From Polaromonas sp. CF318 (lineage in GTDB: Bacteria > Pseudomonadota > Gammaproteobacteria > Burkholderiales > Burkholderiaceae_C): a stretch of DNA of 56,899 nucleotides. The stretch covers positions 1 through 56,899 of the forward strand of contig NZ_AKIV01000010.1 of the NCBI RefSeq assembly GCF_000282655.1. The letters run 5' to 3'. The position numbers and the translations under genes were made by a program. The notes below the pieces were generated by a model, which searched no databases, was not told where the DNA came from, and saw nothing but the letters and a program-made list of their open reading frames with translations. This document shows, piece after piece, positions 2 to 11,604 of this stretch. Position 1 is the stretch's first letter, and each line of letters starts with the position of its first letter.

Positions 2-691
2 CGCCGTTGGTCGTGGCTGCCGTCCATCCGCATCCACCGCATCATGCGTGAAGACCAGGACCGCGACTTCCACGATCACCCATGGAACGCCCGCACCATC
101 GTCCTGCGCGGCGGCTACACCGAAGCACTGCCAGGCCAGCCTTACCTGCGCACCCGCCTTCCGGGCATGACCGGACGGCTGCTGTTCGGGGAATACCACC
201 GCATCACCAGCGTCAGCGTCGGCGGCGTCTGGACGCTGTTTTTCACATGGAAATACCAGGGCACATGGGGTTTCCTTGTCGACGGCAAGAAGGTGCCATG
301 GCGCGAATACCTCGGCAAAAACAAGGTCTCAAACGGCAGCGCCGTCGCTGATCAGTTGGCGACGGCGGATGCAACGGCGGCCGTGATCGAGGCCGCCCGC
401 CAGTGGTCAGCAGACCGCGAAATTCAAGACTGGAGCGAAGCCGACCTCATGAAGGCGATCGCCACCCTGGATGGCGACTGGCCCGGCTGCGATGACTGCC
501 AGTTTGACTGCGACGAGCCATGCATGCCGTCGACGGTGGCTCAGTTCCACCGCGCCATTGACTGCCAGGTCGCACAGCTCGTGCACGACGGCAAGTTACC
601 CAAGTACGAAGGCTACGAGCCGCCGCAAGGCTTCGTGCCGACGCCACCGCGCCGCAAGCGCATTCCCATCGCTTCCCATCACCAACCGTAA
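2..691 (+). CDS. Partial phage-type hypothetical protein with cupin-like HDHPW motif
   Basis: The frame is open from the window edge, and codons before the first ATG (44) read like protein (an IRIHRIM stretch), so the gene starts upstream. The N-terminal half contains DFHDHPW followed by VLRGGY, a pattern I associate with small cupin-like phage proteins in which the histidines could bind metal. After about residue 110 comes an acidic, cysteine-containing part (CDDCQFDCDEPC). The stop lies 13 bp before the ATG of the first DGR target. No function is assigned; the cupin resemblance is judged by eye. Confidence 0.6.
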   Translation, partial: RRWSWLPSIRIHRIMREDQDRDFHDHPWNARTIVLRGGYTEALPGQPYLRTRLPGMTGRLLFGEYHRITSVSVGGVWTLFFTWKYQGTWGFLVDGKKVPWREYLGKNKVSNGSAVADQLATADATAAVIEAARQWSADREIQDWSEADLMKAIATLDGDWPGCDDCQFDCDEPCMPSTVAQFHRAIDCQVAQLVHDGKLPKYEGYEPPQGFVPTPPRRKRIPIASHHQP

Positions 692-704
692 ACAGGAGAA
701 AACC

Positions 705-1211
705 ATGGATACACAAGTCGCTACCCACAATGTGCTCACCCCACCAGCCCACGGCGAGATCTGGCCAGGCCAGGGCGGGCGCTTCATCTGCACCATGCCC
801 GCCCTGATGGGTGTGCCGGCGCGCCACCTCGTCGTCAGCGAGGGCGAGGCCGAGGACCTCCAATATGGCCCCTACGGCCTGGACGTGCCCGGCGCCAAAA
901 GCCAGATCGACGGCCCCGCCAATACCCAGGCACTGATCGACAGCGGCCAGAACCACCCAGCAGCACAGTGGGCCCGCGCCTATACGGCTGACGGCCACTC
1001 GGATTTTTACCTGCCTACGCGCCTGGATTTGGTGATGGCCCACATCTGCGCATCGCAGCTTTTCAACCAGCAGGACTACTACTGGTCTAGCACGCAGACC
1101 TCGCGCACCAGCGCCTTCGTCCAGTACTTCGAGTACGGCAGCAGCTACTGGTACTGCAAGGACGGCGAGTTTCGGGTTCGTGCTTTCCGCTGGGTTCTCT
1201 TGACACCTTAA
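705..1211 (+). CDS. DGR target protein 1, DUF1566/C-type-lectin-like variable protein
   Basis: This 168-aa protein starts at ATG 705 behind AGGAG; an upstream in-frame extension lacks a ribosome site and overlaps the previous gene. The C-terminal half resembles DUF1566 (Lcl C-terminal, C-type-lectin fold): GHSDFYLPTRLDL near residues 97-109, YWSSTQ near 126-131 and the ending FRVRAFRW. Residues 129-162 are the variable repeat. The positions matching AAC template codons are S129, T132, T135, S136, Y141, Y144, S146, Y148, Y150, C151 and G154. No signal peptide or membrane segment is seen. By analogy it is a ligand-binding protein whose surface is diversified; the ligand is unknown. Confidence 0.9.
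   Translation: MDTQVATHNVLTPPAHGEIWPGQGGRFICTMPALMGVPARHLVVSEGEAEDLQYGPYGLDVPGAKSQIDGPANTQALIDSGQNHPAAQWARAYTADGHSDFYLPTRLDLVMAHICASQLFNQQDYYWSSTQTSRTSAFVQYFEYGSSYWYCKDGEFRVRAFRWVLLTP
1089..1190 (+). repeat. DGR variable repeat VR1
   Basis: This 102-bp segment aligns without gaps to the template at 2993-3094. Thirteen of the 22 adenines in the template's 11 AAC codons are changed (for example AAC to TAC, AGC, ACC, TGC, GGC). The only other mismatch is the second codon (ACG versus template GCG), shared by all three VRs, so it probably marks the 5' limit of exchange. The final 24 bp, GAGTTT through TTCCGC (1167-1190), are identical to the template and would hold the initiation-of-mutagenic-homology site. 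Confidence 0.95.
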
Positions 1212-1240
1212 ACCCTTCAATCCTCAAAGAGTCCATCACC

Positions 1241-1255
1241 ACCGGCGTAGCCGGT
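1241..1255 (+). other. VR1-downstream hairpin
   Basis: ACCGGC-GTA-GCCGGT is a perfect 6-bp stem with a 3-nt loop, 50 nt after VR1 and 29 nt after the target stop. The same stem follows VR2 and VR3. In BPP-1 a hairpin/cruciform downstream of the variable repeat is needed for efficient retrohoming, and this is the natural candidate. A T-run follows 6 nt after the stem, so a weak terminator role is possible. Confidence 0.7.
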
Positions 1256-1279
1256 CCGCAATTTTTTTCAGGAGCATCC

Positions 1280-1789
1280 ATGAAACCCAATCCATTCAAG
1301 CCGCCTTACCTCACAGGGTATGTCGCGGGCCAGGGCGGCTACCTCGCAGCCGTCATGCGCGGCCACGTCGTCAACGGCGTTGAGCAGCCAGCCTATGCAC
1401 TCATCGCATCCGAGGCCGCCGCCGGCGAGTTCATCAGCATCTGGGGCAACCGCGACCAATCTGTCGACGGCGCCAACAGCCGCCACGACGGCAAAGCCAA
1501 CACCGAAGCCATGGCCGCTGCTGGTTGCCCTGCAGCACTCAAGGTGAAGGCCTTGGTGATCGAAGGCCACAGCGACTGGTACGTGCCCAGCCTGGGCGAA
1601 TTGAATGCCGCCGCATCCAATGCCCCCGAGTTGTTCAGCAAGGGCTGGCATTGGACCAGCACGCAGTACTCGCGCAACCTCGCCTTCGTCCAGCTCTTCG
1701 AGTACGGCGACAGCAGCTGGGACAGCAAGGACGGCGAGTTTCGGGTTCGTGCTTTCCGCCGGATTCCTCTTGAAGCCTTGACCACTTAA
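1280..1789 (+). CDS. DGR target protein 2, DUF1566/C-type-lectin-like variable protein
   Basis: This 169-aa protein begins at ATG 1280 behind CAGGAG. Its N-terminal part has GQGGYLAAVMRG and YALIASEA, shared in pattern with targets 1 and 3. The DUF1566-like part has GHSDWYVPSLGELNAA near residues 96-111 and WTSTQ before the variable region (residues 127-160), and ends in FRVRAFRR. Its DNA from about 1567 is nearly identical to the equivalent part of target 3, suggesting a recent duplication. No signal peptide is seen. It is one of three alternative binding proteins served by a single template. Confidence 0.9.
   Translation: MKPNPFKPPYLTGYVAGQGGYLAAVMRGHVVNGVEQPAYALIASEAAAGEFISIWGNRDQSVDGANSRHDGKANTEAMAAAGCPAALKVKALVIEGHSDWYVPSLGELNAAASNAPELFSKGWHWTSTQYSRNLAFVQLFEYGDSSWDSKDGEFRVRAFRRIPLEALTT
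1658..1759 (+). repeat. DGR variable repeat VR2
   Basis: The segment aligns without gaps to the template at 2993-3094. Thirteen of 22 AAC adenines are substituted, including two AAC-to-CTC double changes, AAC-to-GAC, AAC-to-TAC and AAC-to-GGC; one AAC codon (seventh) is unchanged. All other template adenines (in CAG, GAG, AAG, GAC, AGC codons) are conserved. The last 24 bp match the template exactly. Confidence 0.95.
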
Positions 1790-1805
1790 ACACCTTCATC
1801 CTCTC

Positions 1806-1820
1806 ACCGGCGCAGCCGGT
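1806..1820 (+). other. VR2-downstream hairpin
   Basis: ACCGGC-GCA-GCCGGT is a perfect 6-bp stem with a 3-nt loop, 46 nt after VR2, followed by CCGCGATTTTTT. It has the same stem as the other two hairpins, with a C instead of T in the loop of the first. Confidence 0.7.
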
Positions 1821-1850
1821 CCGCGATTTTTTCAACCATCAGGAGTTTTC

Positions 1851-2366
1851 ATGAAGCCAGTGAATTTCACACTTCCAGCCTTCGGCAGCGTCATCGCTGG
1901 CCAGGCCGGCATCCTCGCAGCCATCATGCGCGGCCCTTCCATCTTCGGCGTCGAGCAGCCGCCCTATGCCCTGCTGATCTCCGATAAATCCGAAGGCGAG
2001 ACCGACAAGCACGCCTATGGCAATTACGGCACCGATGTCGCCGGCGCCACCAGCCGCACCAACGGCAAAGCCAACACCGATGCGCTGGTGCTCGCGCAAA
2101 GCCCAGCGGCTCTGTGGGTGCGCGAACTGTCCATCGGCGGCCACAGCGACTGGTACGTGCCCAGCCTGGGCGAATTGAACGCCGCCGCAGCCAATGTGCC
2201 CGAACAGTTCGAACCAAAAGGCATCTATCAAGCCAGCACGCAGCTCTCGCGCAACCTCGCCTTCGTCCAGGACTTCGAGAGCGGCCGCAGCAACTGGTAC
2301 CTCAAGGACTACGAGTTTCGGGTTCGTGCTTTCCGCGCGATTCCGCTTGAACTCTTGACCACTTAA
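1851..2366 (+). CDS. DGR target protein 3, DUF1566/C-type-lectin-like variable protein
   Basis: This 171-aa protein starts at ATG 1851 behind AGGAG. Its architecture matches target 2: GQAGILAAIMRG, a GVEQPPYALL segment, GKANT, then GHSDWYVPSLGELNAA near residues 97-112, and the variable region at residues 129-162, ending FRVRAFRA. Variable residues include L132, L136, D141, S144, R146, Y150, L151 and Y154. The VR sits at the extreme C-terminus, nine residues from the end, as is typical for DGR targets. No export signal is visible. Function beyond diversified binding is unknown. Confidence 0.9.
   Translation: MKPVNFTLPAFGSVIAGQAGILAAIMRGPSIFGVEQPPYALLISDKSEGETDKHAYGNYGTDVAGATSRTNGKANTDALVLAQSPAALWVRELSIGGHSDWYVPSLGELNAAAANVPEQFEPKGIYQASTQLSRNLAFVQDFESGRSNWYLKDYEFRVRAFRAIPLELLTT
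2235..2336 (+). repeat. DGR variable repeat VR3
   Basis: The segment aligns without gaps to the template at 2993-3094. Thirteen of 22 AAC adenines are substituted (CTC three times, CGC, GAC, AGC, TAC); two AAC codons (seventh and the one after AGC) are unchanged. It shares its first, seventh and eighth AAC-site codons with VR2 but differs at most later ones. The last 24 bp are identical to the template and to the other VRs. Confidence 0.95.
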
Positions 2367-2382
2367 CCAATTCCCCAACCCC

Positions 2383-2397
2383 ACCGGCGCAGCCGGT
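2383..2397 (+). other. VR3-downstream hairpin
   Basis: ACCGGC-GCA-GCCGGT is a perfect 6-bp stem with a 3-nt loop, 46 nt after VR3, the same spacing as after VR2. It lies between target 3 and avd and is followed by a short T-run. Confidence 0.7.
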
Positions 2398-2415
2398 CGT
2401 TGAATTTTTCTACCC

Positions 2416-2805
2416 ATGGCCCTTCATACCGAACTTCCCATCTACGAGCACGGCTGCAAATTGCTGGAGCTGGCGCTCGACGTCCAGACCCAGATGCGCC
2501 GCGACTTCAAACGCACGCTGGGCGACAGGATTCACGCCCTGTGCGTGGACATGCTGGAAGACATGGCCATGGCAAACGCCACCAGGGAGCATGAAAGGCT
2601 GGAGCAGATCGAAATGCTGCTCAAGCATTCACGCACGCTCACTGCGCTGCTACGTGTGGGCCACGCCCACAAAATGAAGTTGATCAGCAATGCCCTCTGG
2701 GCTGATTCCATTGACCTGCTGGACACCATTGGTGCGATGGCAGGGGGTTGGAAAAATCAGACCAAAGATGTCATTGCCAGGCTTTCCACGGCGCCTGCTG
2801 TATGA
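2416..2805 (+). CDS. avd: DGR accessory variability protein (Avd-like four-helix bundle)
   Basis: This 129-aa protein lies between the last target and the template repeat, exactly where avd sits in BPP-1. It is almost wholly helical by eye, with charged amphipathic stretches (HERLEQIEMLLKHSRTL near residues 59-75) and a C-terminal GWKNQTKDV, consistent with the 120-130 aa Avd/bAvd family. Avd forms a basic pentamer that binds RT and nucleic acid and is needed for cDNA synthesis. No good ribosome site precedes ATG 2416, so translation may be coupled to upstream genes or weak. Confidence 0.82.
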   Translation: MALHTELPIYEHGCKLLELALDVQTQMRRDFKRTLGDRIHALCVDMLEDMAMANATREHERLEQIEMLLKHSRTLTALLRVGHAHKMKLISNALWADSIDLLDTIGAMAGGWKNQTKDVIARLSTAPAV

Positions 2806-2992
2806 CGGTCAAGGCCATCATGCCCGTGCGTTTTATGAATCCGGTCGAGCCGCTGGGCACCTCGCCCACCGCCATGCGCACCACGGATACCGGCGAGCAC
2901 TTACAGCTCGATCTATGGTCCGGCGCAGTTTCCGGGCTGATCGGTACTCAAAGCAATTTGAGCCTTCGGCCTGGCGACGTAGATAGCTCGGC
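2806..2992 (+). other. avd-TR spacer with GCAA-tetraloop hairpin
   Basis: No convincing gene lies between avd and the template. A frame is open into the RT reading frame, but it runs through the template and reads as low-complexity S/T/R. A perfect stem-loop CTCAAA-GCAA-TTTGAG (2947-2962) with a GNRA tetraloop lies 30 nt before the template and could be part of the structured template RNA. Confidence 0.5.
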
Positions 2993-3094
2993 AACGCGCA
3001 GAACTCGCGCAACAACGCCTTCGTCCAGAACTTCGAGAACGGCAACAGCAACTGGAACAACAAGGACAACGAGTTTCGGGTTCGTGCTTTCCGC
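2993..3094 (+). repeat. DGR template repeat (TR)
   Basis: This 102-bp non-coding copy of the target 3' ends contains 11 AAC codons in the target frame, an extreme enrichment because AAC gives the widest amino-acid choice when adenines are mutated. It pairs with VR1-VR3 with no indels. Eight further adenines lie in non-AAC codons from the third codon on and are never changed in the three VRs. The final 24 bp contain no adenine after GAG and are identical in all copies. It is expected to be transcribed as the template RNA for the RT. Confidence 0.96.
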
Positions 3095-3103
3095 GGATTC
3101 ATC

Positions 3104-3122
3104 CGCCCCACACGATGGGGCG
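3104..3122 (+). other. TR-downstream hairpin
   Basis: CGCCCCA-CACGA-TGGGGCG, a perfect 7-bp stem with a 5-nt loop, starts 9 nt after the template and ends 9 nt before the RT ATG. It could structure the template RNA 3' of the TR, where DGR cDNA synthesis is primed in BPP-1, or influence RT translation. Confidence 0.55.
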
Positions 3123-3131
3123 CCCTTTTCA

Positions 3132-4214
3132 ATGGCAGACCTAGTCCATGCGTGGCTGGGCTGCGAGCGCCACAAGCGCCAGACCCACAGCGCCAAGGCC
3201 TTCCGGTCTTATATCGAACGTGAATTGTGCCTGCTGCGCGCCGAGTTGATCAGCCAAACCTATGTGCCCGGCCGCAGCAGTTGCTTTGTCGTCACCCACC
3301 CAAAGCCGCGCGAGATCTGGGCCGCCGACTTCCGCGATCGCGTCGTGCACCAACTGCTCTACAACGCCATCGCTCCACGTTTCCTGGCCAGCTTTGACGC
3401 CGGCAGCGCCGCATGCATCCCGGGCCGCGGCACGTTGTATGCCGCCAAGCGCCTGGAGCATCAGGTGCGCAGCATCACCCAGAACTGGAGCCGCCGCGCC
3501 TTCTATCTCAAGTGCGACCTGGCCAATTTCTTTGTCGCAATCGACAAGCAGGTGCTACAGGCCGAGTTGCACAAGAAAGTCAAACATCCATTCTGGCGCT
3601 GGCTGGCCGACACAGTTCTGATGCATGACCCACGCACCGACTTCCGGCTGCGCGGCGATCCCGGCCTGCAAGACATGGTGCCGGGCCACAAGCGCCTGGT
3701 AAATGCACCCAATGAGACCGGCCTGCCCATCGGCAACCTGAGCAGCCAGTTCTTTGCCAACGTGCTTTTGGACGTGCTGGACCAGTTCTGCAAGCACCAG
3801 CTCAAGGCAAGGCATTACGGGCGCTACGTCGACGACTTCATCTTGCTGCATGAAAGCCCACAGCAACTCAACGAATATCTGCAACGCCTCACCGCATGGC
3901 TTCCTGAGCGCCTGGGCGTGCGCCTCAATCCCAGCAAAACCATTTTGCAGCCCATAGATCGCGGCGTCGACTTCGTAGGCCATGTCATCAAGCCATGGCG
4001 CAGGACCACCCGCAAGCGCACCGTCGCCGTCGCCATCAAACGGCTGCGAGAGATGCCGGCGGAAGAAGTCTTCACCGCTGGCAACAGCTATCTGGGATTG
4101 GCACGCCAGGCCAGCCACAGCCACCACGACCAGGCCCAGCTCATGAATGTGCTGCGCAAGCGCGGCCACAGCTTCAAACCCGACTTAACCAAGATTTTTA
4201 GGAAGGCCGCTTGA
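3132..4214 (+). CDS. DGR reverse transcriptase
   Basis: This 360-aa protein is taken from ATG 3132. The frame is open further upstream, but that part reads through the template and lacks protein character. RT motifs are clear: palm motif A with the catalytic Asp in LKCDLANFF (D129), the DGR-type IGNLSSQ (residues 200-206) and YVDD (232-235), followed by a thumb-like region (LGVRLNPSKT). The length fits DGR RTs (about 280-400 aa), and there are no maturase or endonuclease domains as in group II introns. It copies TR RNA with adenine-specific errors, acting with Avd. The coding region ends one base before the next ATG. Confidence 0.95.
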   Translation: MADLVHAWLGCERHKRQTHSAKAFRSYIERELCLLRAELISQTYVPGRSSCFVVTHPKPREIWAADFRDRVVHQLLYNAIAPRFLASFDAGSAACIPGRGTLYAAKRLEHQVRSITQNWSRRAFYLKCDLANFFVAIDKQVLQAELHKKVKHPFWRWLADTVLMHDPRTDFRLRGDPGLQDMVPGHKRLVNAPNETGLPIGNLSSQFFANVLLDVLDQFCKHQLKARHYGRYVDDFILLHESPQQLNEYLQRLTAWLPERLGVRLNPSKTILQPIDRGVDFVGHVIKPWRRTTRKRTVAVAIKRLREMPAEEVFTAGNSYLGLARQASHSHHDQAQLMNVLRKRGHSFKPDLTKIFRKAA

Positions 4215-4450: not shown

Positions 4451-6520
4451 ATGACAAACGCCGTCGCCACCACCGAGTCCTTCGCCCGCATGGCCCACAA
4501 CCTGCTGGTGCCGAGCCTGACCAATCGCAAGCCGCTGCCTCTGGCAAAACTCCAGGCGATGGCCGACACCATGCGCAACGGGCGCGGCGTGCGCCAAGCG
4601 CTGATCGTGCGCGTGCTCCCCCCTGAGCGGCTGCACGATACAAAGCTCAACACCCCCAAGGGTCAACCGTTGCCCACACACGAAATTGTGTGTGGTGAAC
4701 AACGCTGGCACGCCGGCGCGCTGGCCGCGCTGCAGGACGTGCCCGTCATCATCCGCAAACTCACCGACGCCGAGGCCCTCGAAGAGCAGGTGATCGAGAA
4801 CGTCCAGCGCCAGGACTACACCGAGTTCGAAGAAGGCGAGGCCTTCCAGCGCCTCATGCAGCACAACCACCTCACCGCCGACGAGGTGGCCGCCAAGGTC
4901 GGCCGCAGCCGCCGGCATGTGTTCAACCGCATGAAGCTGCTGGACCTGCGCGCCGAAACAAGGACGGCGCTGACCGCGGGCGAGATCGACGCCACCCGGG
5001 CCTTGCTGCTGGCCCGCATCCCAGACCATGAGCAGCAACTCAAGGCCCTGCCCATGCTGGCCAAGCGCGACTTCCATGGGGACTACGAACTCAGCAGCGC
5101 CCGCGCCAGCGAACTCATACAGCGCGACTTCATGCTCAACCTGAGCGGCGCGCCCTTCAAGTGCACCGACGAGACGCTGGTGCCAGAGGCGGGCAACTGC
5201 AAGACCTGCACCAAGCGCACCGGCCACAACCCCGACCTGTTCGCCGACGTCAAGGGTGCAGACATTTGCACCGACCCGCCCTGCTACCACCGCAAGGAAG
5301 CCGCGCACCACAACCGCGTGCTCGAGCAGGCCCACGCCAACGGGCAAGAGGTCATCACCGGCCGCGAGGCCAAGGCTCTCATGCCCAACAGCTTTGGCGG
5401 CATAGAAGGCTACCTGCGGCTTGACGACGCCAAGGACAGCCCTACCGACAAGCCGCTGCGCAAGTTGCTGGGCAACATTCTGGAGCGCGATGAGGTCAAG
5501 ACCACGCTGGTCGAAAACCCCCATAACAAGGGCGAGATGATCGCCGTGCTACCGGCCGCCAAAGTGGCCGAACTGCTCAAGGCGCGTGGCCACAAAGCAG
5601 CCGCCAGCGCGTTGGAGGCCGAGGAGGAGGGCACCAGCCGCGCCCAGGCCGAGGCCGCTAAGGAGGCCAAAAAGCTGGCGTTCGAGCAGGGCTGGCGCGA
5701 CGAGTTGCTCAACCGCACCTACGCAAAACTCTGCGAGGCCGCGCCCATCGAGTTCCAGGTGATCTCTGACGACGTGCTGCGCATCATTGCCCGCCACCTG
5801 GTCGACCGCGCCAACGGCGAGCGCACCCGCCAGCTCTGCGAGTTGCTGGCGCTGGGCAAGATCGCCCCGCGCCAGGCCTTGAACGACTACATCCTGGCCT
5901 GCGCCGATCCTGAGCGCGTCGTCCTGCTGCTGGTCATGCACGCCGACGTCGAGTTCAAGGATTTCATGGCCGACCCCACCGCCGCCAACCGCGGCCTGCT
6001 GCAAGTCGCTAGCGAATACGGCGTCGACGTCCAGGAAGCCAAGGACGCCACCAAAAAGGCCATCCGCGCCTCCGAAAAGACCCCTACCCCGGCGGCTTCG
6101 CCATCTAAGGGGGAGGGGGGGGGCCAAGACCAAAAACGAAAAACCTCCAGAAAACCCAAGATCTCCGCAGAGCAAGCCACTCAAGGCATCGCTTCCGCGA
6201 TGCAAAACCTTGAAGAGAAAGCGGCGGTTCCCGCCGCAGCGCCGCCAGCCGTACAACAACCCACAACCACCAAGACGGCCAGCAAGCCCGGCAAAGGGCA
6301 GGAACCTGCCGCACCAGCGGCAGGCGGCGAGGTAGACCCCCTGCAGCAACAGGCCGCCCAACTCGTCATAACTCAGCAGAAGGCCACCGTGCGCCTGCTG
6401 AAGACCGAACTAGGCATAGGCACCACCAAGGCCCTGGAGGTGATGGCTTGGCTGGAGGCCCAGGGCACAGTCAGCACCTGCGACGAACGCGGCGTGCGGA
6501 AGGTTCTGGTGGCGGTATGA
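4451..6520 (+). CDS. Large ParB-like partition/nuclease-family protein
   Basis: This 689-aa protein starts at ATG 4451; codons further upstream overlap the previous gene out of frame. The N-terminal ParB/Sulfiredoxin-type domain has GEQRWHAGALA (the ParB GERRxRA box) and NVQRQDYTEFEEGEAFQRLM, followed by an HTH-like VAAKVGRSRRHVFNRMKLL. A cysteine cluster (CKTCTKRTGHNPDLF through CTDPPCY, about residues 255-285) may bind metal. The extreme C-terminus (TVRLLKTELGIGTTKALEVM) resembles the FtsK-gamma winged helix. It is much longer than chromosomal ParB (about 300 aa). No ParA neighbour is present, so a role in partition is uncertain. Confidence 0.8.
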   Translation: MTNAVATTESFARMAHNLLVPSLTNRKPLPLAKLQAMADTMRNGRGVRQALIVRVLPPERLHDTKLNTPKGQPLPTHEIVCGEQRWHAGALAALQDVPVIIRKLTDAEALEEQVIENVQRQDYTEFEEGEAFQRLMQHNHLTADEVAAKVGRSRRHVFNRMKLLDLRAETRTALTAGEIDATRALLLARIPDHEQQLKALPMLAKRDFHGDYELSSARASELIQRDFMLNLSGAPFKCTDETLVPEAGNCKTCTKRTGHNPDLFADVKGADICTDPPCYHRKEAAHHNRVLEQAHANGQEVITGREAKALMPNSFGGIEGYLRLDDAKDSPTDKPLRKLLGNILERDEVKTTLVENPHNKGEMIAVLPAAKVAELLKARGHKAAASALEAEEEGTSRAQAEAAKEAKKLAFEQGWRDELLNRTYAKLCEAAPIEFQVISDDVLRIIARHLVDRANGERTRQLCELLALGKIAPRQALNDYILACADPERVVLLLVMHADVEFKDFMADPTAANRGLLQVASEYGVDVQEAKDATKKAIRASEKTPTPAASPSKGEGGGQDQKRKTSRKPKISAEQATQGIASAMQNLEEKAAVPAAAPPAVQQPTTTKTASKPGKGQEPAAPAAGGEVDPLQQQAAQLVITQQKATVRLLKTELGIGTTKALEVMAWLEAQGTVSTCDERGVRKVLVAV

Positions 6521-8651: not shown

Positions 8652-9601
8652 GCGAAAAAACACCCATCGAGTGGACCGACGCCACGTGGAACATCATCAC
8701 TGGCTGCGACATCGAAAGCCCAGGCTGCCGCGACTGCTATGCCATGAAGCTGGCGGGCACGCGGCTGCGCAACCATTGGTCGCGCATCAACCTCACGAAG
8801 ATGAGCGCGGCCGGACCCGTCTGGACTGGAGAGGTCCGCTTCAACGAGCCGTGGCTGAACCAGCCGATGGACTGGACTCGGTCGCGCATGATCTTTGTCT
8901 GCGCGCACGGCGACCTCTTCCACCCCGGCGTGCCCTTTGAAACCATAGACCGAATCTTCGCAGTCATGGCGCTGTGCCCACAGCACAAATTCCAGGTGTT
9001 GACAAAGCGCACCGCCAGGATGGCCGAGTACTTCGCCAACCCCATCCGCGAAGCGCTGATAGGCCAGCAGGTCGGGCAGTTGCACCTGCAGCGCACAGGC
9101 GATCCGGTCAGCCAGTGGTCTGGCCTGCCCATGCCCAACGTCTGGCTCGGCACAAGCGTGGAAAACCAGCGCTATGCGGACGTGCGCCGCGCCCCGCTCG
9201 CTGCCCTGGCGGATGCGGGCTGGCTGACCTGGGCCAGCTACGAGCCGGCGCTGGGCCCCGTCGACTGGAGCGACTGGGAGTTTCTTCGCTGGATGGTCGC
9301 CGGCGGCGAGAGCGGCGCCACGGCCCGGCCGCCGCATCCCGATTGGTTCCGTGCAGCGCGCGACTTTTGCGCCACGGCAGAGGTGGCGTTCCTGTTCAAG
9401 CAATGGGGAGAGTGGGCGCCAGTAGATGTGGTCGACAGCGACCCTGAATGCGCCGAAATATTCAAGGACGACGGCACCGAAGAGCAGCTTTTCGGGCGCC
9501 TGACTCTCTCCCGTATTGGCGGCGCCCACGTCGCCAAGCTTGGCAAGAAAGATGCCGGCCGCCTGCTGGACGGCGTAGAGCACAACGAGTTTCCGCAATG
9601 A
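8648..9601 (+). CDS. DUF5131 / phage Gp37-Gp68 family protein
   Basis: This 317-aa protein starts at an ATG overlapping the methyltransferase stop. The N-terminal IEWTDATWNIITGC followed by SPGCRDCYA is the signature of the DUF5131 (phage Gp37/Gp68) family. Its CxxxxxxxCxxCY cysteines resemble a radical-SAM or metal-cluster motif. Other family stretches are LTKRTARM, WLGTSVENQRYADVR and WMVAGGESG. Members are common in phages and islands, often near methyltransferases. The biochemical function is not established, so no activity is claimed. It is coupled to the genes on both sides by 4-bp overlaps. Confidence 0.88.
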   Translation: MSEKTPIEWTDATWNIITGCDIESPGCRDCYAMKLAGTRLRNHWSRINLTKMSAAGPVWTGEVRFNEPWLNQPMDWTRSRMIFVCAHGDLFHPGVPFETIDRIFAVMALCPQHKFQVLTKRTARMAEYFANPIREALIGQQVGQLHLQRTGDPVSQWSGLPMPNVWLGTSVENQRYADVRRAPLAALADAGWLTWASYEPALGPVDWSDWEFLRWMVAGGESGATARPPHPDWFRAARDFCATAEVAFLFKQWGEWAPVDVVDSDPECAEIFKDDGTEEQLFGRLTLSRIGGAHVAKLGKKDAGRLLDGVEHNEFPQ

Positions 9602-10095: not shown

Positions 10096-10536
10096 ATGGC
10101 CATTGAAATCCTTCCCAGAGTCATCCGGCAGCGCGATGCGCCAGACTATCTGGGCATGGACAAAAACCGCTTCAACGAGGAAGTTCGGCCCGAATTGACT
10201 GAGGTCCCCATGGGCAAACACGGCATCGCCTATGACAGGCTAGAGCTGGACGCCTGGTGGGAAGCGTATATTGCTGCCCGTGGGCGTCCGGGTCGCAACC
10301 GAAAAGGAGAAAGACCATGCGAACCCGAACAAAGGGAATCCAACTCGTCGGGGACGAGCGGATCATTGAAAAGCAATACCACGGTGTACGCATCTTCCAG
10401 CGCCTCGGCAAAATCAGTCAAGACGACGCGGAGGCATGGCTTAGAGGCAGGCAAGCGGAAATCGACAACGACCGAGAACGGGAGCTTCGAACGGGCAATA
10501 GCCGCCTGTTCGCTGATGGGGCAGCGAAGTACCTGA
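10096..10536 (+). CDS. Putative excisionase/AlpA-like DNA-binding protein, 3' part overlaps integrase
   Basis: The N-terminal 72 residues (IRQRDAPDYLGMDKNRFNEEVRP, then an ELDAWWEAYIAARGRPGR part) look like the MerR/excisionase-type winged HTH typically encoded just before a tyrosine integrase. From about residue 75 the sequence becomes low-complexity S/T/K and overlaps the integrase coding sequence in another frame for 220 bp. The frame has no earlier stop, so the protein either truly carries this tail or the annotated end is an accident of frame. Role: directionality of excision, inferred from position and HTH look. Confidence 0.55.
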   Translation: MAIEILPRVIRQRDAPDYLGMDKNRFNEEVRPELTEVPMGKHGIAYDRLELDAWWEAYIAARGRPGRNRKGERPCEPEQRESNSSGTSGSLKSNTTVYASSSASAKSVKTTRRHGLEAGKRKSTTTENGSFERAIAACSLMGQRST

Positions 10537-11438
10537 TCGAGTGCAAAGCCAAGGGTGTGCGCACCCTGGACACGATCAGTTACCACGTTACCCTTCTGCT
10601 GCCGTACATTGGCCGACTGCCGATGCCGCTGGTCTGCAATGAGTCGCTGGAAAGCTTTGTGGCCGATCGGCTTGAGGATGGCGTCAAAAACGCCACCATC
10701 AACCGCAGCCTGGAGGTGGCGAGAACCATCACCAACCGGGCCGCACGCGTGTGGCGGGACAACGGCAAGCCATGGATACCCAGCCCGCCGCTGATCGAGA
10801 TGATGGACGAGACAGCACAGCGCCGCCAGCCCTACCCCATCACCTGGGCGCAGCAGGCGGCGCTGGTGCCAGCCTTGCCTGGTCACTTGCAGCGGCCCGT
10901 GCTGTTTGCCTTAAACACCGGCGCCAGGGATGACAACATCTGCGGCCTGCGGTGGGACTGGGAAGTGAAGGTGCCGGAGTTGGGGCGCAGCGTGTTTGTT
11001 GTGCCGGCGGAGGAGTTCAAGGGGCAGCGCGACCACGTGCTGATTCTGAATGATGCCGCCTGGAGCATTGTGGAGTCGTGTCGTGGCCGTCACGAGGACT
11101 ATGTCTTTGTGTACCGCCGCGAGCGGGTCAAGCATCTTGACCGGCCGCCGGAGATGGAATACCGGCGTATCGACACCATCAACAACACCGCGTTCCAGCG
11201 TGTGCGGGCGGAGGTTGGACTGGAGAAGATGCGGGTTCACGACCTCCGCCACACCTTCGGCCAGCGGCTGCGCGACGCCGGCGTCACCGAGGAAGACAGG
11301 GCCCTGCTGCTGGGCCATGCGATAGAAGGAATGCCGCAACACTATGCGACGGCCACGGTGGCCCGCCTGGTGGAGGCGGCCAACAAGGCACAGTACACGG
11401 TGGACCGGACCACCCTGCTACGTGTTGTAAATGGGTAA
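10317..11438 (+). CDS. int: Tyrosine recombinase / phage integrase
   Basis: This 373-aa protein starts at ATG 10317 with GGAGAAAG just upstream. The catalytic core is complete: the first Arg in NTGARDDNICGLRW, then HDLRHTFGQRL (H-x-x-R), LLGHAIEG, and the nucleophile Tyr in MPQHYATA. The N-terminal part has the usual core-binding helices (MRTRTKGIQ onward, then RTLDTISYHVTLLLPYIG). It would integrate and excise the element at the adjacent tRNA-Arg gene, whose 3' end it faces. It is intact, so the element may still be mobile. Confidence 0.93.
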   Translation: MRTRTKGIQLVGDERIIEKQYHGVRIFQRLGKISQDDAEAWLRGRQAEIDNDRERELRTGNSRLFADGAAKYLIECKAKGVRTLDTISYHVTLLLPYIGRLPMPLVCNESLESFVADRLEDGVKNATINRSLEVARTITNRAARVWRDNGKPWIPSPPLIEMMDETAQRRQPYPITWAQQAALVPALPGHLQRPVLFALNTGARDDNICGLRWDWEVKVPELGRSVFVVPAEEFKGQRDHVLILNDAAWSIVESCRGRHEDYVFVYRRERVKHLDRPPEMEYRRIDTINNTAFQRVRAEVGLEKMRVHDLRHTFGQRLRDAGVTEEDRALLLGHAIEGMPQHYATATVARLVEAANKAQYTVDRTTLLRVVNG

Positions 11439-11527: not shown

Positions 11528-11604
11528 TGGTGCGGCTGGCAGGAATTGAACCCACGACCCCTTGGTTCGTAGCCAAGTACTCTATCCAACTGAGCTACAG
11601 CCGC
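11528..11604 (-). tRNA. tRNA-Arg(ACG), integration target
   Basis: The 77-nt cloverleaf on the minus strand has acceptor GCGGCTG pairing with CAGCCGC, a normal D arm (AGCTCAGTTGGATAGAG), anticodon loop CTACGAA (anticodon ACG), TpsiC arm GTGGGTTCAATTC and encoded CCA. Its 3' end faces the integrase gene, as expected of an attB in a tRNA gene. Confidence 0.95.

What the first reader, a model, noticed from the sequence alone, without database searches (positions are those of the whole stretch)
705..4214. Complete diversity-generating retroelement with three targets and one template
Seen directly: a 102-bp template (2993-3094) aligns without indels to the 3' ends of three consecutive genes, with 13 substitutions in each, all at template adenines, plus one shared G/A difference at the 5' edge. 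An Avd-like gene and an RT with IGNLSSQ and YVDD complete the set. From known DGRs (BPP-1 and relatives), this is a targeted hypermutation system. It sits in an integrated element next to an intact integrase.
Basis: partly seen in the sequence, partly recalled or inferred. Interest (0 to 1): 0.95.

Follow-up and report, generated by a model that had tools for sequence, protein, structure and literature searches.

The report
Prophage mutator with four early-gene targets
A prophage in this likely Polaromonas bacterium carries one template whose sequence recurs in four target genes with differences only at adenines, the mark of a targeted mutator, and the genes lie in what is predicted to be the phage's early-control region rather than among its tail genes, so the varied proteins likely work inside the cell instead of helping the phage attach.

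Summary
Confirmed, and larger than reported. Template 2997-3094 matches three tandem targets with 12 changes each, all at adenines, and a fourth target on another contig with 14 (0 of 280 non-adenine cells changed). Avd, an RT grouping with DGR RTs and Rfam RNA RT-15 5' of the template complete the cassette. A 47-bp repeat of the tRNA-Arg 3' end ties both contigs to one prophage. It is a DGR, but not placed like the tail-fibre kind: cassette and targets lie on the strand of the putative repressor and the integrase, opposite the structural genes. Related temperate phages share this layout where assessable and have two or more targets in 26 of 27 loci; five opened outgroup phage DGRs lie among tail or lysis genes. 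One congener carries both kinds, with separate templates. In three close pairs of relatives VR adenines differ far more often than other sites, so such DGRs look active in nature. Fusions to early-type domains suggest an intracellular role. Mutagenic retrohoming is well supported but untested here; what the lectins bind is unknown. New variant of a known kind.

The parts
705..1211 (+). target gene 1 (168 aa; C-terminal Lcl_C/DUF1566-type lectin-like domain)
   Evidence: PF07603 27.1 bits (cut-off 34.9); phrog_4245 9e-27
1093..1190 (+). variable repeat 1
   Evidence: 12 of 28 adenines changed, 0 of 70 other sites
1191..1225 (+). post-VR tract with TTNA-N4-TTNA (also after VR2, about 1760-1795, and VR3, about 2337-2370)
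   Evidence: 35 of 45 post-VR stretches, 0 of 20 post-template stretches
1241..1255 (+). short hairpin ACCGGC-GTA-GCCGGT after target 1 (similar at 1806-1820 and 2383-2397)
   Evidence: function unclear
1280..1789 (+). target gene 2 (169 aa); predicted C-type-lectin fold
1662..1759 (+). variable repeat 2
   Evidence: 12 of 28 adenines changed, 0 of 70 other sites
1851..2366 (+). target gene 3 (171 aa)
   Evidence: PF07603 22 bits (cut-off 34.9); phrog_4245 9e-23
2239..2336 (+). variable repeat 3
   Evidence: 12 of 28 adenines changed, 0 of 70 other sites
2416..2805 (+). avd (accessory variability determinant), 129 aa
   Evidence: phrog_3206 4e-22; NF033474 44.5 bits (cut-off 80); PF22296 39.6 bits (cut-off 40)
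2789..2998 (+). Rfam RF03018 RT-15 RNA: likely 5' part of the template RNA
   Evidence: 165.1 bits, gathering score 82
2997..3094 (+). template repeat (TR); 10 of its 32 full codons are AAC
3132..4214 (+). DGR-type reverse transcriptase, 360 aa
   Evidence: PF00078 57.6 bits; phrog_1423 1e-103; tree
10257..11438 (+). tyrosine integrase of the prophage
   Evidence: PF00589 54.4 bits; phrog_1 1e-32
11528..11574 (+). att direct repeat in the 3' end of tRNA-Arg(ACG), 47 of 47 identical at G000:C148:29899-29945

Best explanation
This is a diversity-generating retroelement whose single template matches four target genes except at adenines, carried on the strand of a prophage's putative repressor and its integrase and opposite its structural genes, and it likely diversifies lectin-like proteins that would act inside the infected or lysogenic cell rather than tail fibres. 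Shown: four targets changed only at adenines; an avd-RT pair that groups with known DGRs; a conserved RNA just 5' of the template; the same gene layout in related temperate phages where it could be assessed; adenine-focused differences between close relatives. Inferred: that RT and Avd copy the template RNA with adenine errors and that the cDNA replaces the target 3' ends up to the adenine-free block 3073-3094, as in BPP-1; that the putative left promoter, which bears one of three putative operators, makes the operon repressor-controlled and early; that the varied domain works in the cytoplasm, most plausibly by binding host or rival-phage factors (defence, counter-defence or exclusion).
For: Adenine-only differences: 50 of 112 adenine cells and 0 of 280 other cells over four VRs, while the target parts before the VR are only 47-67% identical. 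RT inside a 26-row DGR group, support 99/98, apart from three RTs taken as non-DGR. RT-15 RNA before the TR in 10 of 10 loci searched. Prophage: att repeat, terminase, portal, head and tail genes on C148. Early arm: CII-like gene and structural genes face away from target 4; 3 operator-like sites at the control region (pattern chosen after seeing the sites) and 0 in the window. Labelled repressor upstream on the RT's strand in 5 of 7 annotated relatives; structural genes opposite in the 3 viewed. Outgroups: 5 of 5 opened, of the 120 phage records matched, have the DGR among tail or lysis-type genes. Natural variation: L022/L023 VR adenines 19 of 39 against 2 of 1829 other sites; L059/L060 25 of 66 against 63 of 3056; L038/L040 (a distant DGR) 16 of 23 against 10 of 3246. 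Intracellular hints: target 4's N-terminal domain occurs alone (68 hits; the tool's length limits allow only stand-alone sizes); P0076 and P0078 join a VR-like lectin end to a phrog_3007 domain with weak beta-clamp similarity; 29 of 31 proteins tested (29 targets, P0076, P0078) have no 19-residue segment at hydropathy 1.6 or more, while 3 of 3 chromosomal relatives have signal-peptide-like starts.
Against: No expression, virion or binding data. The prophage halves lie on two contigs with an unsequenced joint. The putative repressor (L045 1343-1846) has no Pfam or PHROG match, so it is named by position. Early-arm genes can be expressed in lysogens, early infection or both; timing is not settled. 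An early gene product could still be packaged. Target 3 has a borderline hydrophobic stretch (1.68). Some long, tail-type phage proteins share the fold. Targets persist with no RT among the annotated neighbours in phages D3, U7 and Medea1, so diversification is not essential to their role. TR and VR 3' ends are identical, so an IMH/IMH* pair was not seen. Four further pairs (two of them the same phage twice) showed no VR adenine difference, one showing a single non-adenine VR difference. P0076 and P0078 were not shown to have a template.
Confidence: 0.62

Rival explanations
1. A classical tropism-switching DGR: the targets are virion receptor-binding proteins that happen to be encoded in the other arm, as the Magia announcement allows (alter its host range).
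For: Best-studied phage DGR function; the lectin fold suits receptor binding; the viral structure library also lists long tail-type proteins with this fold; PMC7883833 passages mention host range for Magia.
Against: Target 4 lies opposite the structural genes, and the cassettes of three annotated relatives do too. Targets are small (147-275 aa) and some are fused to domains that also stand alone; two VR-like relatives are fused to a DNA-metabolism-type domain. Congener G464 has a separate DGR with its own template beside tape-measure and tail genes as well as the early-arm one. The template finds no match in this genome beyond itself and the four targets.
Confidence: 0.12
2. Lysogeny variant of the main reading: the lectins are made in the lysogen from the repressor side and give the host varied exclusion of, or immunity to, other phages.
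For: Phage D3 orf68, a relative of the targets, is the first annotated gene after cI; Magia gene 57 and the Cruim01 third target lie near the repressor. A review and a study propose DGR-based immunity (PMC10053308 passages; PMC10907252 passages), there for other DGRs.
Against: In this prophage a terminator-like site lies between the putative repressor gene and target 4, followed by an operator-bearing promoter-like site, which fits repression in the lysogen; these are consensus scans: 3 promoter-like sites against 0.9 expected, 4 terminator-like sites against 4.8 expected.
Confidence: 0.22
3. An inactive relic: a DGR that once worked and is now only inherited.
For: No near-identical isolate was found, so present activity of this copy is untested.
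Against: RT, avd and all four targets are open; the non-adenine VR sites are 280 of 280 identical to the template although the parts before the VR diverge to 47-67%, which implies recent overwriting; close pairs of relatives are diversified.
Confidence: 0.04

Closest known systems
Bordetella phage BPP-1 DGR (mtd-avd-TR-brt)
   Same: [quoted passage not shown] lectin-type fold of Mtd is recalled.
   Different: BPP-1 cassette lies in the structural arm opposite cI, with one annotated tail target; here early arm, at least four targets, RT-15 RNA family and a conserved post-VR tract; the BPP-1-type post-VR hairpin (7-10 bp stem, 4-nt GRNA loop, PMC3240598 passages) is not general in this lineage.
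Burkholderia phage Magia DGR (and Shewanella QDWS, Pseudomonas Haboob, phPA-G, Cruim01, SC_8, LPPA56)
   Same: RT 57-63% identical, two or three VR targets, early-arm placement where assessable.
   Different: Fewer targets found; target 4's N-terminal domain has no match in the phage collection. PMC7883833 (passages) names genes 47 and 57 as potential targets; the scan finds a third VR (8251-8341 of L057) in the next gene.
[quoted passage not shown] two-target phage DGRs with tentaclins
   Same: One DGR serving several targets, many of them lectin-fold (PMC10743442 passages; PMC6642488 passages).
   Different: The passages seen do not describe them as lying in the repressor-integrase arm of a temperate phage.
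Cellular DGRs diversifying putative antigen sensors (Thiohalocapsa PB-PSB1)
   Same: Varied lectin domains, several predicted to act inside the cell, some on N-terminal extensions (PMC10907252 passages).
   Different: Those are cellular conflict systems with MoxR/NACHT partners; here phage genes, and the targets tested (1, 2 and 4) and avd have no PADLOC match.

Membership tests
Diversity-generating retroelement (DGR) | Template and variable repeats differing mainly at template adenines | tested here: met
   50 of 50 changes over 2997-3094 at adenines in four VRs
Diversity-generating retroelement (DGR) | RT of the DGR clade rather than group II intron or retron | tested here: met
   26-row DGR group 99/98 with BPP-1 inside, three RTs taken as non-DGR outside (two with QG..SP motifs); long outgroup branches; IGNLSSQ motif
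Diversity-generating retroelement (DGR) | Avd or equivalent accessory gene | tested here: met
   phrog_3206 4e-22; below the curated cut-offs of PF22296 by 0.4 bit and of NF033474 (44.5 against 80)
Diversity-generating retroelement (DGR) | VR in a target with C-type-lectin fold | tested here: met
   [not shown]
Diversity-generating retroelement (DGR) | IMH/IMH* pair at the 3' ends | tested here: inconclusive
   adenine-free 3' block identical in TR and VRs
Diversity-generating retroelement (DGR) | Hairpin after VR with 7-10 bp stem and GRNA loop (PMC3240598; a common, not a defining, feature) | tested here: not met
   targets 1-3 have 6-bp stems with 3-nt loops 46-50 bp after the VR, target 4 none; 13 of 45 stretches in the lineage had a hairpin of the looser kind tested, against 350 of 6000 random stretches
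Diversity-generating retroelement (DGR) | Active mutagenic retrohoming | not testable with these tools
   needs culture; indirect support from relatives
Tail-fibre tropism-switching DGR (BPP-1 type) | Cassette with tail or late structural genes on the late strand | tested here: not met
   opposite arm and strand; 5 of 5 opened outgroups lie among tail or lysis-type genes
Tail-fibre tropism-switching DGR (BPP-1 type) | Target is a virion protein | not testable with these tools
   needs virion proteomics
Retron or defence RT (DRT) | Membership of a retron or DRT family above cut-off | tested here: not met
   NCBIfam retron, DRT and group II models all far below their cut-offs; PADLOC RT models match only generally, best PDLC01136 5e-31, no cut-off given

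The most novel reading that the evidence does not exclude
A lineage of temperate phages runs an intracellular, self-diversifying recognition system: from the repressor-controlled early operon they make a repertoire of hypermutated lectin-fold proteins, some grafted onto early DNA-metabolism proteins, that grasp changing host-defence or rival-phage factors, while tail tropism is left to a separate DGR when there is one (as in congener G464).
Probability: 0.33. Interest if true: 0.92.

Novelty: new variant of a known kind. Interest (0 to 1): 0.64.

Why it matters
In the global survey whose passages I read, targets of the virus-dominated DGR clades are mostly annotated as tail proteins used in attachment (PMC8144416). 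A phage DGR lineage whose targets lie in the early arm, sometimes carry early-type N-terminal domains and come in sets of two to four would mean phages use targeted hypermutation inside the cell as well. The congener with one DGR in each arm lets the two roles be compared in one genome, and the set makes it testable what an early phage protein gains from hypervariability.

Tried and rejected
RT as retron, group II or defence RT: rejected. A first tree with badly cut outgroups was discarded; L080, L082, L083 and L016 were dropped, and L078 (a stop inside) was never used.

More targets elsewhere in the genome: the template finds itself and four VRs only, at E<=0.01.

A third VR at the left end of L006 (a target-like end): not supported (33 non-adenine mismatches at best). 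L019 was not scanned for VRs.

BPP-1-type hairpin as the target mark: a hairpin in 13 of 45 stretches, enriched over random (350 of 6000) but not lineage-wide; the octamer tract is in 35 of 45. A stricter tract pattern gave 21 of 49 (some anchors were off).

Att repeat for congener G464: none found in the part compared, and no integrase like the window's; its prophage ends are unmapped. The plasmid collection gave only RTs under 60% identical.

Papers: searches; none of the listings or passages that I saw describes an early-arm phage DGR lineage; the library holds open-licence PMC papers only. Passages only were read of PMC7883833, PMC8144416, PMC10743442, PMC12860723, PMC3240598, PMC6642488, PMC10053308 and PMC10907252; PMC8143477 and PMC12875486 were seen in listings only.
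Full report
1. Observation. The 102-bp template at 2993-3094 aligns without gaps to 1089, 1658 and 2235, 88 of 102 identical each, with 13 adenine changes and one shared G-to-A. Two differences (2994, 2996) are shared by all three targets, so the exchanged tract is 2997-3094, with 12 changes per target. A search of the whole genome finds the template and exactly four VRs: the three in the window and one at C148:335-445, minus strand. In that fourth VR 14 of 28 adenines are changed and none of 70 other sites. Over all four: 50 of 112 adenine cells and 0 of 280 other cells changed (19 to G, 19 to T, 12 to C). If changes fell at random, all 50 at adenines would have a chance of about 6e-28. Upstream of the VR the four genes are only 47-67% identical, so the VRs look freshly overwritten from one template. 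Ten of 32 template codons are AAC; changing the first two letters of AAC cannot make a stop codon.

2. Cassette. avd 2416-2805 matches phrog_3206 (Avd, 4e-22) but scores just under the Pfam cut-off and well under NCBIfam's. The RT (3132-4214) has IGNLSSQ and YVDD (that this form is DGR-typical is recalled). In the second tree (four rows dropped) it sits in a 26-row DGR group (99/98) that holds BPP-1, in a 14-row subgroup (97/95) with the Magia, QDWS, Cruim01, Haboob and LPPA56 RTs; the three outgroup rows are taken as non-DGR (QG..SP motifs in two) and have long branches. Rfam RT-15 (RF03018) lies at 2789-2998, ending at the template (165 bits), and was found at the same place in 9 of 9 further loci searched (a tenth, L027, was left out for length). 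No paper in the library holds both the DGR phrase and RT-15.

3. The element. The window is a whole contig (C10). Its tRNA-Arg 3' end next to the integrase is repeated 47 of 47 at C148:29899-29945 in the matching orientation, so the prophage most likely runs from there through C148:1, an unsequenced joint, to window 11574, about 41.5 kb plus the joint. C148 codes for terminase (GpA), lambda-type portal, S49 peptidase, gpT-type head protein and a minor tail protein on its plus strand. The host is likely Polaromonas: HrcA is 98% identical to that of Polaromonas sp. YR568.

4. Early arm. Target 4 (C148 1076-327, minus) has the same direction as the window cassette and opposes the structural genes. 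Behind it lies a 167-aa gene taken as the repressor by position only (no Pfam or PHROG match); a CII-like gene (PF06892) faces the other way. A promoter-like site ends 54 bp before target 4 and a mirrored one faces the CII-like gene; the scan found 3 such sites (a third at 1200-1172) against 0.9 expected. Operator-like GTTTAG-N6-CGAAAC with up to 2 mismatches occurs at three places in 20 kb, 1131, 1847 and 1895, two of them in those promoter-like sites and one at the start of the putative repressor gene (six strand hits against 0.67 expected, 0 of 200 shuffles; pattern chosen after seeing it, and palindromic sites count twice), and 0 times in the window.

5. The lineage. A template/VR scan of 46 RT loci (L019 left out) found VRs in 37. 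Of 27 loci with RT at least 56% identical (some are copies of one phage), 26 have two or more VRs (the other is cut by the contig end); of the 19 more distant ones, 1 does (several of these are cut too). Among 7 annotated phages of the lineage a labelled repressor lies on the RT's strand upstream in 5 (Magia, QDWS, Haboob, phPA-G, Cruim01); LPPA56 shows only the integrase downstream and SC_8 is barely annotated. The structural genes are opposite in the 3 that I viewed. Cruim01's third VR lies beside its repressor. Of the 120 phage records with an RT match I opened five outside the lineage (BPP-1, FP_Lagaffe, ACA1, BalMu-1, Bacuni_F1): 5 of 5 have the DGR among tail or lysis-type genes (in Bacuni_F1 the labels are outer capsid protein and amidase). 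RT relatives at E<=1e-80 occur in 6 of 399 family genomes and, at E<=1e-40, in 3 of 87 genus genomes, the window's own counted in both.

6. Congeners. G422, on an unbroken contig, shows the layout: a regulator (phrog_5736, 7e-8), a first target about 0.9 kb on, later two more targets, avd and the template; a phosphoadenosine phosphosulfate reductase-type gene lies between template and RT. G464 carries two DGRs in one region of contig C50: one with three targets (RT 77% identical to ours) running away from a CII-like gene and terminase, and, beyond terminase, head and tape-measure genes, a one-target one (RT 54%) in line with them. Each template matches only its own targets. No repressor was identified there: the one candidate tested has no PHROG match. 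I take both as one prophage because CII-like, terminase, head and tail genes lie between them and the region is bounded by tRNA-Val and what look like host genes (named from sequence by recall) about 41 kb apart; att sites and integrase were not found.

7. Natural variation. In three near-identical pairs VR adenines differ far more often than other sites: L022/L023 19 of 39 against 1 of 65 other VR sites, 0 of 104 template sites and 1 of 1660 elsewhere; Haboob/phPA-G 25 of 66, 0 of 137, 0 of 104 and 63 of 2815; the distant pair L038/L040 16 of 23, 1 of 95, 0 of 118 and 9 of 3033. Four further pairs showed no VR adenine difference; two of these are the same phage fetched twice, and L028/L029 had one non-adenine VR difference. 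No such pair was found for this prophage.

9. Post-VR mark. After the VR a tract TTNA-N4-TTNA occurs in 35 of 45 stretches (20 lineage loci plus target 4 and L071), in 0 of 20 post-template stretches, 99 of 4500 shuffles and 59 of 6000 random stretches; hairpins in 13 of 45, 2 of 20, 46 of 4500 and 350 of 6000. The tract also follows 7 of 7 VRs of G422 and G464, the tail-arm VR included, so it is not a mark of the early arm. It may be the target mark that a hairpin provides in BPP-1 (PMC3240598 passages); this is inference.

10. Verdict. DGR identity is nearly certain (about 0.97); early-arm placement strong (about 0.85); an intracellular role plausible (about 0.55); what is bound is open. Multi-target DGRs and one phage of this lineage were already in print (PMC7883833, PMC10743442, PMC6642488, passages); early-arm targeting as a lineage trait was not seen in the searches listed under Tried and rejected.

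Noticed in passing
L091, L092 (G464 contig C50, RTs at 86782-87855 minus and 119801-120871 plus): What looks like one prophage with two DGRs, one in the early arm with three targets and one beside the tail genes with one target; templates do not cross-match.
   Followed up: partly
L090 3042-4124 minus (G422 contig C3): A phosphoadenosine phosphosulfate reductase-type gene lies between template and RT of the congener's DGR.
   Followed up: partly
window about 1191-1225, 1760-1795, 2337-2370 and many relatives: Octamer-repeat tract TTNA-N4-TTNA follows most VRs and no template tested.
   Followed up: yes
P0076, P0078: VR-like lectin end fused to a phrog_3007 domain with weak beta-sliding-clamp similarity.
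   Followed up: partly
L069 7917-8477 (phage D3 orf68); L070 5869-7177; L072 5243-6438: Homologues of the targets without an annotated RT nearby; in D3 it is the first annotated gene after cI.
   Followed up: partly
window 2789-2998: Rfam's RT-15 family appears to be the 5' part of this DGR lineage's template RNA; phage Cruim01's record labels the same stretch RT-15.
   Followed up: partly
window 44-691: Gene upstream of target 1 matches phrog_4786, named cysteine dioxygenase.
   Followed up: no
window 8672-9601: phrog_2045 protein that also matches PADLOC candidates PDC-M41B and PDC-M30B.
   Followed up: no
window 4451-6520: ParB-like protein with a C-terminal FtsK gamma domain; the prophage gene at L045 4204-5925 (DUF5906) carries an FtsK gamma domain too.
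   Followed up: no
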